Source: Candidatus Micrarchaeum acidiphilum ARMAN-2 | GTDB lineage: Archaea; Micrarchaeota; Micrarchaeia; Micrarchaeales; Micrarchaeaceae | DNA length: 64,000 bases | Assembly (NCBI GenBank): GCA_009387755.1 | Contig: GG697240.1 | Span: forward strand, 126,001 to 190,000 | Direction: 5' to 3' | Shown here: piece after piece, positions 619 through 5,814 of the stretch | How positions within the stretch are numbered: position 1 is the first letter of the stretch | How the letters are laid out: each line of letters opens with the position of its first letter | Translations under genes and position numbers: made by a program | Notes under the pieces: generated by a model | Told to the model about the DNA's origin: nothing | The model's input: only the letters and a program-made list of their open reading frames with translations | The model's database searches: none

Positions 619-1614
619 GTGGAGAAGCTTACTTATGGAATAATAGGTCTTGGACATATTGCCGAGAAGGCATATCTTAAGGCGGCAGGGTATGCTGCAG
701 GAGCCGAGCTAATTGCGGTGTGTGACAAGGATAAATCAAGACTTGCTTTGGCAGATGGTCTTGGAGTAAGCACGTATTCCAACTATGGTGATATGATTGC
801 CAAGGAAAAACCGGATTTTATAGTTGCGCTTACGCCGCATAACGAATATCATGATATTATCAAGGCTGCAGCCAGACGTGGGATAGGCGTATTCAAGGAA
901 AAGCCGCTCGGGCGCGACTTGAAGGAGGCAAAACGCTTTGTTGCTCTTGCAGAGAAGAACGAAATAAAGCTTGGAGTAGGTTTGCAGCGCAGATTCAGCA
1001 GCCTCAACAGAAACTTTGAGAGCATGAAAAATGCGATATCCGGGATATTCTTTGTAGAAGGCAAGTACACCATGCACGTTGACAATCCTGGCGAGGGATG
1101 GCGCGGGCAAAAAAGCCTCGCTGGAGGCGGCTGCATAATAGACATGGGATATCATATGCTAGACATGCTCATATGGTATTTTGGCATGCCGGAGTATGTA
1201 CACGCGTATATTAGCACGGCAGCTATGCCGAAGACGAATTATGACGCTGAGGACACTGCGCTTGTAAGCTTTAAGTATGGGAATGGGGCATACGGATCTG
1301 TGACCATATCTAGGTATTACTACCCGAAAACAGAATATGTAAAGGCCGTTGGCAATAACTTTGTAGGCGCCCTTGAAAGGGAAAGCGCAGAGTTGATAAA
1401 CAAGGACGGCAGAGTTGTGAAGCGGATGGACTACAAGTATGACATGGTGAACCTGGCGGCAGTGCAGATTGACAATTTCTGCAGGTTGATAAAAGGCGAT
1501 AAGAATGCGGTTGACTTGATTCCGGATAACCTCAGGGTTATGTCACTGATAGACGCAATTTATGCATCGGCCAACAAGGGCAGGTATGTCAAGGTAAACC
1601 ATGCGGGGGTGTAA
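619..1614 (+). CDS. Gfo/Idh/MocA-family NAD(P)-dependent oxidoreductase
   Basis: A 331-aa cytosolic protein with a GTG start preceded by a purine-rich GGAAAGGGG. The N-terminal Rossmann fold is clear: GIIGLGHIA at residues 7-15 binds the dinucleotide. EKP at 94-96 carries the lysine conserved in this family, and GGGCIIDMGYHMLD at 169-182 holds the Asp and His of the catalytic site. The C-terminal half fits the family's alpha/beta substrate domain. Members oxidise or reduce sugars, inositols or similar polyols; the substrate cannot be read from sequence. The IscU-like gene follows without a gap, so the two are probably cotranscribed, although no functional link between them is obvious. Confidence 0.88.
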   Translation: MEKLTYGIIGLGHIAEKAYLKAAGYAAGAELIAVCDKDKSRLALADGLGVSTYSNYGDMIAKEKPDFIVALTPHNEYHDIIKAAARRGIGVFKEKPLGRDLKEAKRFVALAEKNEIKLGVGLQRRFSSLNRNFESMKNAISGIFFVEGKYTMHVDNPGEGWRGQKSLAGGGCIIDMGYHMLDMLIWYFGMPEYVHAYISTAAMPKTNYDAEDTALVSFKYGNGAYGSVTISRYYYPKTEYVKAVGNNFVGALERESAELINKDGRVVKRMDYKYDMVNLAAVQIDNFCRLIKGDKNAVDLIPDNLRVMSLIDAIYASANKGRYVKVNHAGV

Positions 1615-1620
1615 TTGATA

Positions 1621-2007
1621 ATGGAAGGCAGCAGTTTTAGTTTATGGTCTATCGAAAAGCTTGGCAATATAAAGAACAGAGGTAAGCCTGCAAAATTCAA
1701 TGCGAGCGCCAACCTGGAAAACACGATGTGCGGGGACGATGTCACAGTTTATCTCAGTATACAGGACAATAGAATAAAAGATGCATCGTTCGAAGGGGAG
1801 GGCTGTTCAGCAACAGTAGCCGCTGCGGACGCACTAATGGAGTTCATAAAGAGCAAGGAAGTGGATGAAGTGGTGTCATTTGGAAGTGATTTCATGGAGA
1901 GCCTGCTAAACGTGAAGATCGAGCCTTCGCGCAGCAGGTGTGTCAATCTGGGGCTCAGGGCGGTAAAGGCGGCGATAGCAGAATATTCCAAGAGCGCAAC
2001 ATCTTGA
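1621..2007 (+). CDS. IscU/SufU/NifU-N iron-sulfur cluster scaffold
   Basis: A 128-aa protein of the IscU/NifU N-terminal family, which assembles [2Fe-2S]/[4Fe-4S] clusters and passes them to apoproteins. All three cluster-ligand cysteines are present with the usual surroundings: ENTMCGDDVTV (C37), GEGCSATVAAADAL (C62) and RSRCVNLGL (C107). The ATG at 1621 is preferred; a TTG at 1615, directly after the upstream TAA, would add two residues. No cysteine desulfurase or HscAB homologue is nearby. The gene is probably in one transcript with the oxidoreductase. Confidence 0.88.
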   Translation: MEGSSFSLWSIEKLGNIKNRGKPAKFNASANLENTMCGDDVTVYLSIQDNRIKDASFEGEGCSATVAAADALMEFIKSKEVDEVVSFGSDFMESLLNVKIEPSRSRCVNLGLRAVKAAIAEYSKSATS

Positions 2008-2027: not shown

Positions 2028-2717
2028 ATGGCAGATATTGAATTTGAAACCAAGAAGGAAAAGATAAAGAAGGTATATGAAAAATTGACCAAGGTCCTCC
2101 AGACTGAGGAGATAGTGCTAGTTGGCGGTTCGGCAATGCTGCTAACTGCGGATCACGAAAGAAAATTAAACGATCTTGACGTTGCAGTGCCCCCGAAGGC
2201 ACTTGTTGGCGTACCTGACACGCTTGCGCATGAGATGGGTTTCGAGATGTTTATGGATGGTCCCAAACTTATGACACTGACTGACACGGAGACAGGGCTT
2301 GAGGCAGAGGTCAGCGCAAAAAATTGCGGAAATCTAAATGCAAAGCTCGGCCTTCCAAAGTATACCGAGGAGAAGCCCACAATATTGGGCTTGGATTTGT
2401 GGAAGGTAATAAGAGACTCAGTAATTGTCGATGAAATCAGGACTCCTTCGCCATTCCACCAAGTTTTAATGAAATATAACCTATGGAGATTCAGAGGTGA
2501 TGGCAAGATATCCGGGCAGAAGGACGCGGAGGACATCAAGAAGCTGCTTGCATTTTATTATAAGGGCAGTTTGAGCATGTTTTACAATTCCTTCAACGAT
2601 AGGGACCTGGTCAATAGCAACGTAGATGCAAAACAGTTCAAGTTGGATATGGAGTTGATCTCTGGCATTGCATCTGAAAGAGATATGGCCGGACAGATGG
2701 AAAATAACAAAGCATAG
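2028..2717 (+). CDS. Nucleotidyltransferase-fold protein of unknown role
   Basis: A 229-aa protein. Residues 29-38 (IVLVGGSAML) and 48-52 (NDLDV) form the G-G-S...D-x-D signature of the polymerase-beta-like nucleotidyltransferase fold, the only firm domain call. Nucleotide transfer to RNA, protein or a small molecule is typical of the fold, but no substrate domain is recognisable here. The gene opens a four-gene same-strand set (aaRS-like, dTMP-kinase-like, deaminase-like) with gaps of 13-22 bp and one overlap, suggesting one transcript. It is not a MNT/HEPN pair. Confidence 0.6.
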   Translation: MADIEFETKKEKIKKVYEKLTKVLQTEEIVLVGGSAMLLTADHERKLNDLDVAVPPKALVGVPDTLAHEMGFEMFMDGPKLMTLTDTETGLEAEVSAKNCGNLNAKLGLPKYTEEKPTILGLDLWKVIRDSVIVDEIRTPSPFHQVLMKYNLWRFRGDGKISGQKDAEDIKKLLAFYYKGSLSMFYNSFNDRDLVNSNVDAKQFKLDMELISGIASERDMAGQMENNKA

Positions 2718-2730
2718 AGGCGATTGTCGC

Positions 2731-3954
2731 ATGTATAAGGAAAACGCATTGTATGAAATGCTTGATGATTGCACTTATATCGGAACCTCGAAGGACCGGA
2801 TAAAGCTTTCGAGTCTAGAAGAGAAAGAGCATTTTATAATACCGTTTACGTACATAAACCTGACGCACATGGCGCTCAATGTTTTTAGCGTCGCATCCAT
2901 GCTTAGTTCGGCCGGGCACCAAGTTTCAATATTGTTGCACGACAACAACGTACTGTCATATAAGACCTCGACCCGGGCGGTGTTTCCGTCTAGTGTTCTG
3001 TCCGTTGAAAGGTACTCCGAATACCTAGTCGAGGAGATAACTGGTCTGCTCAAGATATTGGGAGCGAACATGTCAAATATTTCAATAATCAAGTCCTCCG
3101 ACACGTGGTATTACCTTGCAAAGAACAAGTTTGACCTTCTAAACTTCTATTACCAGCTGGGAAACATAAGCCTCAGCCCGAAGAGTACTGACAAAGCGCT
3201 ATACAGTACATTCTACCACGTAATACAGAGGCCTTTGGATATGTACGCAATAAATAACTTTTCAAAGATATTCGGCAGCAAGTTTAAGGATCCGAAGTTT
3301 GTTATAGTGCTGGGCAACAGGGCGGAATCCTATATAAAGATTGGCGAAGCGATGCAGAATAGGTACTCGTACTACAAGGGTTTGAAGATACCTGTGGTGC
3401 TTAGATTAAAAGACATACCGATGTTTATGTACGACAAGAAGATGCCGAGCCAGCAGATGAATTACGAGGAACTGTATTCTGTGATAAAAGCCCTCAGGAT
3501 TGACGAGAGGGATAAGGCTAAATTCGTAAACAACTTTATATTGCCATTTGAAAAGTTCTTAAAATACCAGAACATCATTAGAAGCGATCTGGGGTTGAAA
3601 ACCAAGAAGCTTACCGACAGGACCATAGCTGATTATTTTTACGCGATGTATAGGATATTTGACAGGCTTCTAGAAAAGGTTGACTTGTCGGAGAACAGGG
3701 AAGAGATCAGCATAAAGACAAGCGAATATTTCAACCAGATTAGGAGCATAATCACGCACAAGGCGATACTGAAAATCCTGCCGCTTTGCGACGGGGCTAA
3801 TAAGGTCTCGGATATAGCGAAGAAATCGAACATGAATATAGCAAATGTCAGCGCTTATATCAACAAGATGAGGGCTGCAGGCATTGTAACTACTGACCAG
3901 AAGCCCAAAATTAGGTTCAGCAGCATCGTGATAAATTCGGATGTATTTTCATGA
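2731..3954 (+). CDS. Degenerate class I aminoacyl-tRNA synthetase-like (TyrRS/TrpRS-type) protein with C-terminal winged helix
   Basis: Taken from the ATG at 2731, 13 bp after the upstream stop (407 aa); an upstream ATG at 2668 would overlap the previous gene. Residues 34-75 resemble the HUP nucleotide-binding core of TyrRS/TrpRS, with YINLTHMAL where a HIGH motif (HLGH) belongs, then SAGHQVSILLHDNN like the 'G..v..llaD' strand. LKILGAN...IIKSSDTW (108-126), FYHVIQRPLDMY (161-172), VIVLGNRAE (191-199) and KKMPSQQM (236-243) occupy the places of the family's Ser/Asp region, 'QpaD' helix and KMSKS loop. Both ATP signatures are altered, so canonical tRNA charging is doubtful. Residues about 345-400 look like a winged helix. 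The fold call is by pattern only and its function is unknown. Confidence 0.5.
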   Translation: MYKENALYEMLDDCTYIGTSKDRIKLSSLEEKEHFIIPFTYINLTHMALNVFSVASMLSSAGHQVSILLHDNNVLSYKTSTRAVFPSSVLSVERYSEYLVEEITGLLKILGANMSNISIIKSSDTWYYLAKNKFDLLNFYYQLGNISLSPKSTDKALYSTFYHVIQRPLDMYAINNFSKIFGSKFKDPKFVIVLGNRAESYIKIGEAMQNRYSYYKGLKIPVVLRLKDIPMFMYDKKMPSQQMNYEELYSVIKALRIDERDKAKFVNNFILPFEKFLKYQNIIRSDLGLKTKKLTDRTIADYFYAMYRIFDRLLEKVDLSENREEISIKTSEYFNQIRSIITHKAILKILPLCDGANKVSDIAKKSNMNIANVSAYINKMRAAGIVTTDQKPKIRFSSIVINSDVFS

Positions 3955-3976
3955 GGTTTTGCTTATAGGTGTTCAT

Positions 3977-4624
3977 ATGCCTTTTATAGTAGTAGAGGGA
4001 GTTAATGGAGCTGGAAAAACAGTAGCGTCTAGCAAGCTTGCGGAGGCTCTCGGAAATGCACAGATTGTCAAGACCCCAATGCCGGGGTTTCTTGAGGAGC
4101 TGAAGGAGTATTTTGTCAGGAACCAGGAAAATATTGTGGCCAGAGTGACGTTCTTCGACGCTGCTACAAAGCACACCTGTGATTTGATAAGGGATATGCT
4201 TTGCAGGGACCCCAACAGATTTGTCATTGCTGACAGATACTGGTATTCTACAATGGCTTCCCACCTAGCTTATGACAGGGTATTCAACGGATCCAAAAGC
4301 AGGGATGAGATAATCGAGATAATGAACATTTCAAAAAAGTACTTCATCAGGCCAGACTTGGTGATACTGATTGATGTGGACCCAGAAGAGAGGCGCAGGA
4401 GGATAGCGCTGAGGAAGGACGGAAGAGATGATGCTTGGCATACGGAAAACGCAGATGAAAGGCTATTTGTTGCGTTCAAGGAAGAGTATGAGAAGGTATT
4501 TGACGATCTTAGGAAGGATGGTACAAAAATTCTAAAAGTGAATAATACGAGGACGGAGATCGACCAGACCGCCGAGATAATACGCAAGGCTACCGGTATA
4601 ATGTTAAAGAGGAATACTGCATGA
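3977..4624 (+). CDS. Thymidylate kinase-like P-loop nucleotide kinase
   Basis: A 215-aa cytosolic kinase. VEGVNGAGKT at residues 6-15 is a Walker A loop, DRYWYST at 86-92 is the DRx motif of dTMP kinases, and an arginine-rich LID (RRRRIALRKDGRDD) lies near 139-152. dTMP kinases convert dTMP to dTDP. The ATG at 3977 has an AGGTG ribosome binding site 6 bases upstream; an earlier ATG at 3941 would sit inside the preceding gene. Its stop overlaps the deaminase start by ATGA, so the two are translationally coupled. It could be the housekeeping tmk or a specialised paralogue serving the cluster. Confidence 0.75.
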   Translation: MPFIVVEGVNGAGKTVASSKLAEALGNAQIVKTPMPGFLEELKEYFVRNQENIVARVTFFDAATKHTCDLIRDMLCRDPNRFVIADRYWYSTMASHLAYDRVFNGSKSRDEIIEIMNISKKYFIRPDLVILIDVDPEERRRRIALRKDGRDDAWHTENADERLFVAFKEEYEKVFDDLRKDGTKILKVNNTRTEIDQTAEIIRKATGIMLKRNTA

Positions 4625-5187
4625 GCACCAAGATAAAATTTGGATCCGAAAAGGCCGCCGAGACAGAAAAGTTTATCCCGGAATGCGTCAGTCTTGCTAG
4701 GAAGAGCGACTGCAACGAATCCAACTACGGCGCAGTAATAGTATATGAAGGGAAGGTGGTCGGCTCGGGATACAACCACATACCGGAAGTGCTTGCGGGC
4801 GAGTATACCTGCAAAGCCTGCCCGCGCAGAAATGTGGAGCTCCATGGCGGAGTGGGATTCGAACTGTGCGTAACTATTCATGCCGAGGAGGCCGCAATAC
4901 AGGACTTTTACGCCAGGAACGGCTTCAACAAAGAACTGCTTTCCAAGTCTACTATGATAGTTGAGAGGTTGAACAAGAATGGAGAGTTGAGTGTATTCAA
5001 CAGCGAATTTGTGCCGTATTGCACGAAATGCGCAGGAGAAGTATACAAAGCCGGGCTGAAGGAGGTTATTTATCACAGGTCTGACGGTTTTATGTCTTTC
5101 AGCCCAAAGGAGCTTGTGCTTGACTCCGTTGCAAGCCTCGCCACAAACTGGCGCAGGCAAATATCCGAATTTACAAAAAAGGATTAG
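4621..5187 (+). CDS. CMP/dCMP deaminase-family zinc protein
   Basis: A 188-aa cytidine/deoxycytidylate deaminase-fold protein. HAE at residues 87-89 supplies one zinc ligand and the catalytic glutamate. PYCTKC at 132-137 supplies two cysteine ligands in a P-x-C-x-x-C form, one residue longer than the usual P-C-x-x-C. GAVIVYEGKVVGSGYNHIP at 37-55 is the first beta hairpin of the fold. dCMP deaminases make dUMP for thymidylate synthesis, which would pair naturally with the adjacent kinase. RNA-editing or riboflavin-type deaminases share the fold, so the substrate is open. Confidence 0.78.
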   Translation: MSTKIKFGSEKAAETEKFIPECVSLARKSDCNESNYGAVIVYEGKVVGSGYNHIPEVLAGEYTCKACPRRNVELHGGVGFELCVTIHAEEAAIQDFYARNGFNKELLSKSTMIVERLNKNGELSVFNSEFVPYCTKCAGEVYKAGLKEVIYHRSDGFMSFSPKELVLDSVASLATNWRRQISEFTKKD

Positions 5188-5193
5188 GCAGAC

Positions 5194-5814
5194 TTATCTG
5201 GATTTTAGCAGCCCGGCAGCTTTTTTTGCATATGTTCTGGCTATTGGGCCGTAGTCAACGCCGTGCATTTTATAGTATTTTTCGGTAGGCATGGACTTGT
5301 TATATTCTTTTTCTCCGGATATTCCAAGCCTTTCTACTAATTTAAGTATTTTCGATTTTGACTTGCCCTCTATTTCCATCGAGTATGGAAGGCGCGGAAA
5401 TTTGTCTATTGTTATGTTCATGCCGTTGAGTTCGTATTCGTCCCTGTCGCTCTCAAAATAGTCGTATTCAGAATAGGGTATGATTTTGTGGATTATCCTT
5501 GCTGTGGTGGCGAAATCGCTTACTGAAACCTCGTGCTCAAACCTGTTCCTGATGTCTTTTCCTATCTGCTCCTTAAGCGTAAGGGTGGTGCGCTTTCCGT
5601 CGGTACGAACACGTACCCATGTGGTTCTGTAGCTCTTTGCGCTTCTTTTTCCAGATATGTAGCCATTGATTGACCTGCTCGATATCTTTGTAACCTGGAA
5701 GTCGAATCGCCTGAAGTGGTATCTGCCCACAAGCTTCGCACCGGCCTTGCGAAGGCTGGTCTCTGCCTGCGCTTTTTTTATCCCAAAAAGGTTTATTTCG
5801 ATTTCGCGGGGCAT
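5194..5814 (-). CDS. CYTH-domain protein (class IV adenylate cyclase / triphosphatase superfamily)
   Basis: A 206-aa protein starting at the ATG at 5814; longer frames would run back into the tRNA-Ala gene. Residues 4-8 (EIEIN) stand in for the ExExK signature, with Asn in place of Lys, followed by WVRVRTDG, TTLTLKEQ and SMEIEG strands that build the CYTH tunnel. Members hydrolyse triphosphates such as inorganic triphosphate or thiamine triphosphate, or cyclise ATP; the activity cannot be assigned here. The start lies 26 bases after the 3' end of tRNA-Ala on the same strand, so the mRNA may be released by tRNA 3' processing. Confidence 0.75.
   Translation of the reverse strand: MPREIEINLFGIKKAQAETSLRKAGAKLVGRYHFRRFDFQVTKISSRSINGYISGKRSAKSYRTTWVRVRTDGKRTTLTLKEQIGKDIRNRFEHEVSVSDFATTARIIHKIIPYSEYDYFESDRDEYELNGMNITIDKFPRLPYSMEIEGKSKSKILKLVERLGISGEKEYNKSMPTEKYYKMHGVDYGPIARTYAKKAAGLLKSR

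What the first reader, a model, noticed from the sequence alone, without database searches (positions are those of the whole stretch)
2028..5187. Cluster of nucleotidyltransferase, aaRS-like protein, nucleotide kinase and deaminase
Four same-strand genes with short gaps or an ATGA overlap combine a polymerase-beta-fold nucleotidyltransferase, a class I aaRS-like protein, a dTMP-kinase-like protein and a CMP/dCMP-deaminase-like protein. I know no pathway with this set. The deaminase and kinase could make dUMP/dTDP, but the other two do not belong to thymidylate synthesis. A route to a modified nucleotide or an aminoacyl-nucleotide conjugate is possible; this is speculation from gene order.
Basis: partly seen in the sequence, partly recalled or inferred. 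Interest (0 to 1): 0.62.

Follow-up and report, generated by a model that had tools for sequence, protein, structure and literature searches.

The report
Archaeal synthetase-like gene regulator near nucleotide enzymes
In a tiny uncultivated archaeon, the gene that looks like a tRNA-charging enzyme has probably lost that job and carries a DNA-binding tail; in relatives it sits back-to-back with genes that appear to make and clean up an unusual nucleotide, so it is more likely a switch for that chemistry than one step of a four-gene pathway.

Summary
The four genes are real, same-strand and tightly packed, and all four are under purifying selection. That protein models as a TyrRS-type class I domain (Foldseek E 8.6e-9; the top 50 PDB hits are all TyrRS or TrpRS), yet it has lost the HIGH and KMSKS motifs. 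The four-gene set occurs only in this genus. Outside it, NTase, kinase and deaminase homologues are scattered, and none lies near the aaRS-like gene except kinases. In all eight non-genus loci the aaRS-like/wHTH gene is head-to-head with a radical-SAM gene or operon. Seven are MoaA-like; the operons, where complete, also carry a nucleotide kinase, CYTH triphosphatase or TFS. The two families co-occur in 8 of 10 genomes each out of 148 (hypergeometric 4e-10, uncorrected for phylogeny). The window kinase belongs to the radical-SAM-operon kinase clade (98/94), apart from housekeeping dTMP kinases. This genome has such an operon 118 kb away; MoaC is absent. Best reading: a TyrRS-fold ligand sensor fused to a wHTH, regulating a radical-SAM/kinase/triphosphatase nucleotide module, here beside a paralogous kinase. 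Regulation, ligand and product are inferred. One four-enzyme pathway is not supported.

The parts
2028..2717 (+). Polymerase-beta-fold nucleotidyltransferase, 229 aa, MenT/DUF6036-like, with GGS...DLD active-site motif intact
   Evidence: DUF6036 E 1.4e-4; model pLDDT 86; Foldseek best hits MenT1 (2.5e-4) and JHP933 (7.8e-4); invariant R45, D49, D51, K149-Y-N, K165-D in A3
2731..3954 (+). 407-aa protein: TyrRS-type class I domain (about residues 30-300) with degenerate HIGH and KMSKS, fused to a C-terminal wHTH (about 342-390); proposed ligand-sensing regulator
   Evidence: 10/148 relatives, 10/301 in the phylum
3977..4624 (+). TMK-like (deoxy)nucleotide kinase, a paralogue of the radical-SAM-operon kinases and not the housekeeping dTMP kinase
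4621..5187 (+). dCMP/cytidine-deaminase-family protein with HAE and CxxC zinc motif plus an extra Cys-rich insert; ATGA overlap with the kinase
5194..5814 (-). CYTH-family protein, convergent neighbour, distant paralogue of the CYTH in the radical-SAM operon; reads EIEIN at the ExExK hallmark
1615..2007 (+). IscU/SufU-like scaffold gene immediately upstream, same strand; possibly co-transcribed
   Evidence: gap of 20 bp to the NTase
619..1614 (+). GFO/IDH/MocA oxidoreductase, first gene of the uninterrupted same-strand run; AT-rich region 470-618 upstream

Best explanation
The locus is a small accessory operon of nucleotide metabolism with a built-in regulator. The 407-aa protein is a class I TyrRS-type fold that has lost its ATP-handling motifs and carries a C-terminal wHTH. 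It binds a small ligand, probably a nucleotide or aminoacyl/nucleotide product, in the old synthetase pocket, and uses the wHTH to control transcription. In relatives its target would be the divergently transcribed module of a MoaA-like radical-SAM enzyme, a TMK- or uridine-kinase-like kinase and a CYTH triphosphatase. That module would modify a nucleotide, phosphorylate it, and hydrolyse or limit the unusual triphosphate. In this genus the regulator gene lies instead in an operon with a kinase of the same clade, to which a dCMP-type deaminase and a MenT-like NTase have been added, while the radical-SAM operon lies 118 kb away. Shown: fold, wHTH, loss of motifs, linkage, divergence, co-occurrence, kinase clade, absence of MoaC. 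Inferred: DNA binding, regulation, the ligand, the modified nucleotide, and any role of the deaminase and NTase.
For: TyrRS-type fold: top 50 PDB hits are all TyrRS or TrpRS, best E 8.6e-9. C-terminal wHTH. HIGH and KMSKS positions are not conserved, while invariant residues T40/Y41, D71/N73 and S123/D124/W126 fall just after the first three parallel strands, i.e. the Rossmann pocket. Head-to-head with a radical-SAM gene or operon in 8 of 8 loci outside the genus (G059, G088, G147, G144, G121, G135, G092, G047), mostly 60-130 bp apart. Co-occurrence with the MoaA-like family in 8 genomes, 10 each of 148, P = 4e-10 before phylogenetic correction. Window kinase in a 98/94-supported clade with radical-SAM-operon kinases. 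Own-genome operon kinase/radical-SAM/CYTH/PfkB at C7:7.4-10.6 kb. MoaC absent in 13/13 genomes, so not molybdopterin. Known parallel: rSAM + nucleoside kinase + nucleoside triphosphatase make and resist 4'-thiothymidine in Photorhabdus (PMC12691670); an archaeal CYTH is a triphosphatase (PMC8233210).
Against: No DNA-binding site could be shown: intergenic regions are AT-rich and dyads are not discriminating. Profile-profile comparison with TyrRS/TrpRS sequences is not significant, so the fold claim rests on one AlphaFold model of moderate confidence (pLDDT 76, TM 0.4-0.5). In sister species G001 (71% complete) the radical-SAM gene is reduced to a 3' remnant and the operon kinase was not found at that locus, while the four-gene cluster is intact, so here the regulator does not depend on the radical-SAM enzyme. 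In the window the gene is co-directional with its neighbours, not divergent. In G047 the partner radical-SAM enzyme is of another family. The relatives are related to one another, so 8 of 8 is fewer than eight independent events.
Confidence: 0.5

Rival explanations
1. The aaRS-like protein is an enzyme: it forms an adenylate or transfers an aminoacyl group to a nucleotide or tRNA, with the wHTH binding nucleic acid, and it is a biosynthetic step of the radical-SAM/kinase module (a GluQ-RS-like or amide-forming role).
For: The pocket rim is conserved. Linkage to biosynthetic genes is strong. Other Micrarchaeota carry clusters of active-looking TyrRS/TrpRS-type paralogues beside dehydrogenase, aminotransferase and RibD-like genes.
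Against: HIGH and KMSKS are absent or unconserved in all rows. The wHTH and the head-to-head gene order are typical of regulators.
Confidence: 0.2
2. Ordinary pyrimidine deoxynucleotide salvage: the deaminase makes dUMP, the kinase makes dTDP, and the NTase and aaRS-like/wHTH genes are unrelated passengers of a short operon.
For: Kinase and deaminase overlap by ATGA. Families are TMK-like and dCMP-deaminase-like. NTase, deaminase and kinase homologues are scattered elsewhere. The deaminase family is common in the order (34/148).
Against: The genome already has a housekeeping dTMP kinase next to a dCTP-deaminase-like gene. The window kinase groups with the radical-SAM-operon kinases, not with housekeeping dTMP kinases. 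The aaRS-like gene is linked to nucleotide-kinase operons elsewhere.
Confidence: 0.22
3. A defence or toxin-antitoxin-like island: the MenT-like NTase is a toxin or effector, and the kinase/deaminase/radical-SAM genes make or deplete antiviral nucleotides in a viperin-like way.
For: NTase model is closest to MenT1. The kinase matches PADLOC VakA (2.5e-14) and PDC-M51B (2.4e-22). Two radical-SAM proteins match pVip (1e-7 to 6e-17). Distribution is patchy: 10 of 148 genomes.
Against: The housekeeping dTMP kinase also matches VakA (5.6e-9) and PDC-M51B (1.1e-16), so those hits are not specific. The radical-SAM proteins score far better as MoaA-like than as viperin. The own-genome radical-SAM, the deaminase and the NTase have no PADLOC hit. 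No relative in viral contigs.
Confidence: 0.08

Closest known systems
BirA and NadR (enzyme-fold transcription regulators; from general knowledge)
   Same: A ligase or nucleotidyltransferase-type fold joined to a helix-turn-helix that controls genes for its own pathway
   Different: BirA is class II-aaRS-like with an N-terminal wHTH; NadR has a nucleotidyltransferase (HUP) domain and remains enzymatic. Here the fold is TyrRS-type class I, the wHTH is C-terminal, and catalytic motifs are lost
Tyrosyl-tRNA synthetase
   Same: Predicted fold and order of secondary structure
   Different: No HIGH, no KMSKS, no significant sequence match, extra wHTH, patchy distribution (10/301); the genome has its own PF00579 synthetases elsewhere
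4'-thiothymidine cluster thmABC of Photorhabdus (PMC12691670)
   Same: Radical-SAM enzyme + nucleoside kinase + nucleoside triphosphatase as a three-gene module
   Different: Bacterial; direct relatedness of the proteins was not tested; here the kinase is TMK-like and the triphosphatase CYTH
Viperin with viperin-associated kinase (pVip/VakA)
   Same: Radical-SAM enzyme paired with a TMK-like kinase
   Different: The radical-SAM family is MoaA-like with CX3CX9C and an extra C-terminal Cys set; the VakA match is not specific
GTP 3',8-cyclase MoaA
   Same: Closest curated family of the radical-SAM partner (E about 1e-27 to 1e-31); C-terminal GG-containing tail
   Different: Scores 83-110 bits against cut-offs of 231-325; CX3CX9C instead of CX3CX2C; no MoaC in the genomes

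Membership tests
Class I aminoacyl-tRNA synthetase (TyrRS/TrpRS) | HUP/Rossmann catalytic fold of the TyrRS type | tested here: met
   AF2 model plus Foldseek against PDB: E 8.6e-9, top 50 all TyrRS/TrpRS; model pLDDT only 76
Class I aminoacyl-tRNA synthetase (TyrRS/TrpRS) | HIGH and KMSKS signature motifs | tested here: not met
   Alignment of 10 members: position reads TPNY/NLTH; no Lys-rich loop conserved
Class I aminoacyl-tRNA synthetase (TyrRS/TrpRS) | Significant family sequence match | tested here: not met
   No Pfam/NCBIfam aaRS hit; hhalign to 16 TyrRS/TrpRS-type sequences E 0.12
Enzyme-fold transcription regulator (BirA/NadR-like) | DNA-binding HTH fused to an enzyme-derived ligand domain | tested here: met
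   wHTH hits at residues 342-390; whether it binds DNA was not testable
Enzyme-fold transcription regulator (BirA/NadR-like) | Binds operators of the linked pathway genes | not testable with these tools
   Head-to-head arrangement only; no distinctive operator found
Housekeeping dTMP kinase | Orthology to the cell's dTMP kinase | tested here: not met
   Separate from housekeeping kinases in the tree; housekeeping copy at C7:113769; below the TIGR00041 cut-off, 69.8 vs 83.25 bits
dCMP/cytidine deaminase family | HAE and CxxC zinc-binding active site | tested here: met
   HAE..., PYCTKC, conserved in relatives; Pfam 43.4 bits vs cut-off 25; substrate not testable
MenT/AbiEii-type nucleotidyltransferase | Polymerase-beta fold with GS...DxD | tested here: met
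   Model pLDDT 86, Foldseek MenT1 E 2.5e-4; GGS...DLD in sequence
MenT/AbiEii-type nucleotidyltransferase | Toxin paired with an antitoxin | tested here: inconclusive
   No obvious AbiEi-type antitoxin beside it; neighbours are an IscU/SufU-like gene and the aaRS-like gene
Viperin (pVip/VakA) system | Radical-SAM protein best matching viperin | tested here: not met
   MoaA models score far higher than viperin; own radical-SAM has no PADLOC hit

The most novel reading that the evidence does not exclude
A class of transcription regulator built from a decayed TyrRS-type synthetase plus a wHTH that senses the product of a MoaA-like radical-SAM/kinase/CYTH module making an undescribed modified nucleotide in Micrarchaeota, a convergent counterpart of the viperin-kinase and thionucleoside clusters.
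Probability: 0.3. Interest if true: 0.78.

Novelty: new variant of a known kind. Interest (0 to 1): 0.5.

Why it matters
If right, it adds a TyrRS-derived, class I member to the few transcription regulators made from ligase or synthetase folds. It also points to an uncharacterised nucleotide-modifying module (noncanonical CX3CX9C MoaA-like radical-SAM enzyme, kinase, triphosphatase) in genomes of about 1 Mb that lack the MoaC step of molybdopterin synthesis. A reduced DPANN archaeon keeping such a module, often alongside nucleotide-cleaning enzymes (HAM1, NUDIX, HD), would suggest it makes or tolerates an unusual nucleotide, which can be tested by metabolite analysis of one enzyme set.

Tried and rejected
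Four-gene pathway: rejected as a conserved unit; only G000 and G001 (same genus) have it, and the flanks checked there (RNA polymerase, LSm region, CYTH, IscU/SufU-like gene) are also syntenic, so that conservation is not informative. Aminoacylation by the 407-aa protein: disfavoured by lost motifs. Housekeeping dTMP synthesis: disfavoured by the separate dTMP kinase and dCTP-deaminase-like pair. Molybdopterin for the radical-SAM partner: rejected, MoaC absent in 13/13 genomes while the control search hits 11/14. Viperin system: rejected as membership; PADLOC kinase hits were shown to be non-specific with the housekeeping kinase as control. Virus or plasmid origin: no hits. Operator search: AT-rich dyads everywhere, nothing usable. 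hhalign against TyrRS/TrpRS sequences: no significant match (in one search two of the three targets were wrong ORFs). dN/dS for the window CYTH and RNA polymerase gene failed through wrong frame coordinates and is not used.
Full report
What is there. The four ORFs are at the stated coordinates on the + strand: NTase 2028-2717, aaRS-like 2731-3954, kinase 3977-4624, deaminase 4621-5187, with gaps of 13 and 22 bp and an ATGA overlap. Between this genome and its sister species G001 all four have dN/dS of 0.07-0.10, so they are genuine genes. The same-strand run starts at the GFO/IDH/MocA gene at 619 and includes an IscU/SufU-like gene, so the transcription unit may be longer than the finding says (inference from spacing). 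The genome is about 1.01 Mb in 8 contigs. Most of the related loci recovered by name belong to Candidatus Micrarchaeota, from the record titles; the window's own record is unnamed.

The proteins. The NTase gives a weak DUF6036 match. Its model (pLDDT 86) is closest to the MenT1 toxin and the H. pylori NTase JHP933, with modest TM-scores. The kinase is Thymidylate_kin (6.8e-16) but stays below the curated dTMP-kinase cut-off. The deaminase is dCMP/cytidine-deaminase family with HAE and CxxC motifs. The 407-aa protein has no aaRS hit in Pfam or NCBIfam, only a wHTH at its C-terminus. AlphaFold2 from nine homologues (pLDDT 76) followed by Foldseek against the PDB gives TyrRS as best hit (E 8.6e-9), and all of the 50 listed hits are TyrRS or TrpRS. 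The HIGH position reads TPNY/NLTH and no KMSKS is conserved. Sequence profiles do not reach significance against Micrarchaeota TyrRS/TrpRS-type sequences. Several of the invariant residues of the domain (T40, Y41, D71, N73, S123, D124, W126) lie right after beta-strands 1-3, where class I synthetases bind their ligand, which suggests that a ligand is still bound.

Neighbourhoods. The 407-aa family occurs in 10 of 148 relatives and in 10 of 301 genomes of the phylum. Only G000 and G001 show the window arrangement. In the other eight genomes the gene is head-to-head with a radical-SAM gene or operon. The listed contents are: G059 radical-SAM, CYTH, TMK-like kinase, TFS; G147 kinase, radical-SAM, CYTH, TFS; G088 radical-SAM and CYTH (contig end); G144 radical-SAM; G121, G135 and G092 radical-SAM and uridine-kinase-like gene, with a NUDIX gene next to the aaRS-like gene (in G092 the aaRS-like gene is split between two contigs); G047 TFS-like zinc-ribbon gene, a radical-SAM enzyme of another family (NF045502), and a TMK-like kinase. 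The radical-SAM family (A2) is MoaA-like but far below MoaA cut-offs. Its cluster motif is CX3CX9C, whereas a sister protein in G013, again in a kinase/radical-SAM/CYTH triad but without the aaRS-like gene, has CX3CX2C. A2 occurs in 10 of 148 relatives, 8 of them shared with the 407-aa family (P 4e-10 ignoring phylogeny). A scan of 84,980 species genomes found nine A2 loci in Micrarchaeota- or Marsarchaeota-labelled records plus two distant partial bacterial hits. MoaC is absent in 13 of 13 genomes tested.

The window genome's own module. G000 has the operon kinase/radical-SAM/CYTH/PfkB at C7:7.4-10.6 kb, 118 kb from the window cluster. It has four TMK-like matches, one at C6 being partial. 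The housekeeping dTMP kinase is at C7:113.8 kb beside a gene that reads as dCTP deaminase (the latter identified by eye). A maximum-likelihood tree places the window kinase with G001, G073 and G129 in a 98/94-supported clade, sister to the radical-SAM-operon kinases (96/86), the whole 10-row group 98/94, away from housekeeping kinases. In sister species G001 the radical-SAM gene survives only as a C-terminal remnant and no operon kinase was found at that locus, while CYTH and PfkB remain. Assembly error or the 71% completeness of that genome cannot be excluded.

The other two genes. Deaminase homologues occur in 34 and NTase homologues in 20 of 148 relatives. By the match coordinates no two of NTase, kinase, deaminase and aaRS-like gene lie within 5 kb of each other outside the genus, except kinases in the divergent operons. 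The nearest other case is a weak NTase match 5 kb from a housekeeping-type kinase in G025. Their membership in the same function is therefore unproven; they may be recent recruits to the operon.

Mechanism proposed. A decayed synthetase domain joined to a wHTH, head-to-head with a metabolic operon at 60-130 bp in most loci, is the usual anatomy of a pathway-specific regulator; BirA and NadR are precedents for enzyme folds serving as sensors (general knowledge). The module itself resembles the rSAM/kinase/triphosphatase set that makes and resists 4'-thiothymidine (PMC12691670), and an archaeal CYTH is a triphosphatase rather than a cyclase (PMC8233210). CYTH relatives in four further genomes sit beside HAM1-type nucleotide-cleaning enzymes. 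I put the regulator reading at 0.5. The enzyme rival (0.2) and the plain salvage rival (0.22) are not excluded. No biochemical step has been shown.

Limits. Most relatives are fragmented MAGs and several loci end at contig ends. The 8-of-8 count includes near-identical pairs (G059 and G088). The fold claim depends on a shallow alignment. One search was cut in output, so neighbourhood statements for three of those loci rest on match coordinates only.

Noticed in passing
L259:2748-9773 (G009) and L260/L261 (G007): Clusters with several TyrRS/TrpRS-type (PF00579) paralogues, some with altered HIGH, beside aminotransferase, zinc alcohol dehydrogenase, RibD-reductase-like and Glycos_transf_3 genes; looks like a biosynthetic cluster using synthetase paralogues.
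   Followed up: partly
L036:8827-9927, L016:10370-11401 and other A2 members: MoaA-like radical-SAM family with cluster motif CX3CX9C instead of CX3CX2C, extra C-terminal cysteines and a C-terminal SGGK tail.
   Followed up: partly
L246, L254, L255, L258: CYTH genes repeatedly beside HAM1-family NTPases, with HAD-type genes nearby in three, in four genomes; a possible nucleotide-cleaning cluster.
   Followed up: partly
window 5194-5814 (-): CYTH protein reads EIEIN where the CYTH hallmark is ExExK; close relatives at 47-49% exist in several genomes in unrelated contexts.
   Followed up: partly
L245:3864-4120: 3' remnant of the radical-SAM gene in sister species G001, flanks intact: recent decay of the operon there.
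   Followed up: yes
L017:6885-11465 (G047): Three neighbouring proteins ending in a KDGHHR/KDGTHR-type stretch, one fused to NUDIX, directly downstream of the aaRS-like/wHTH gene.
   Followed up: no
L037:6874-7905 and L138:4935-5972: 343-345 aa Lrp/AsnC-like HTH proteins near radical-SAM/kinase genes that lack the aaRS-like gene; a possible alternative regulator.
   Followed up: no
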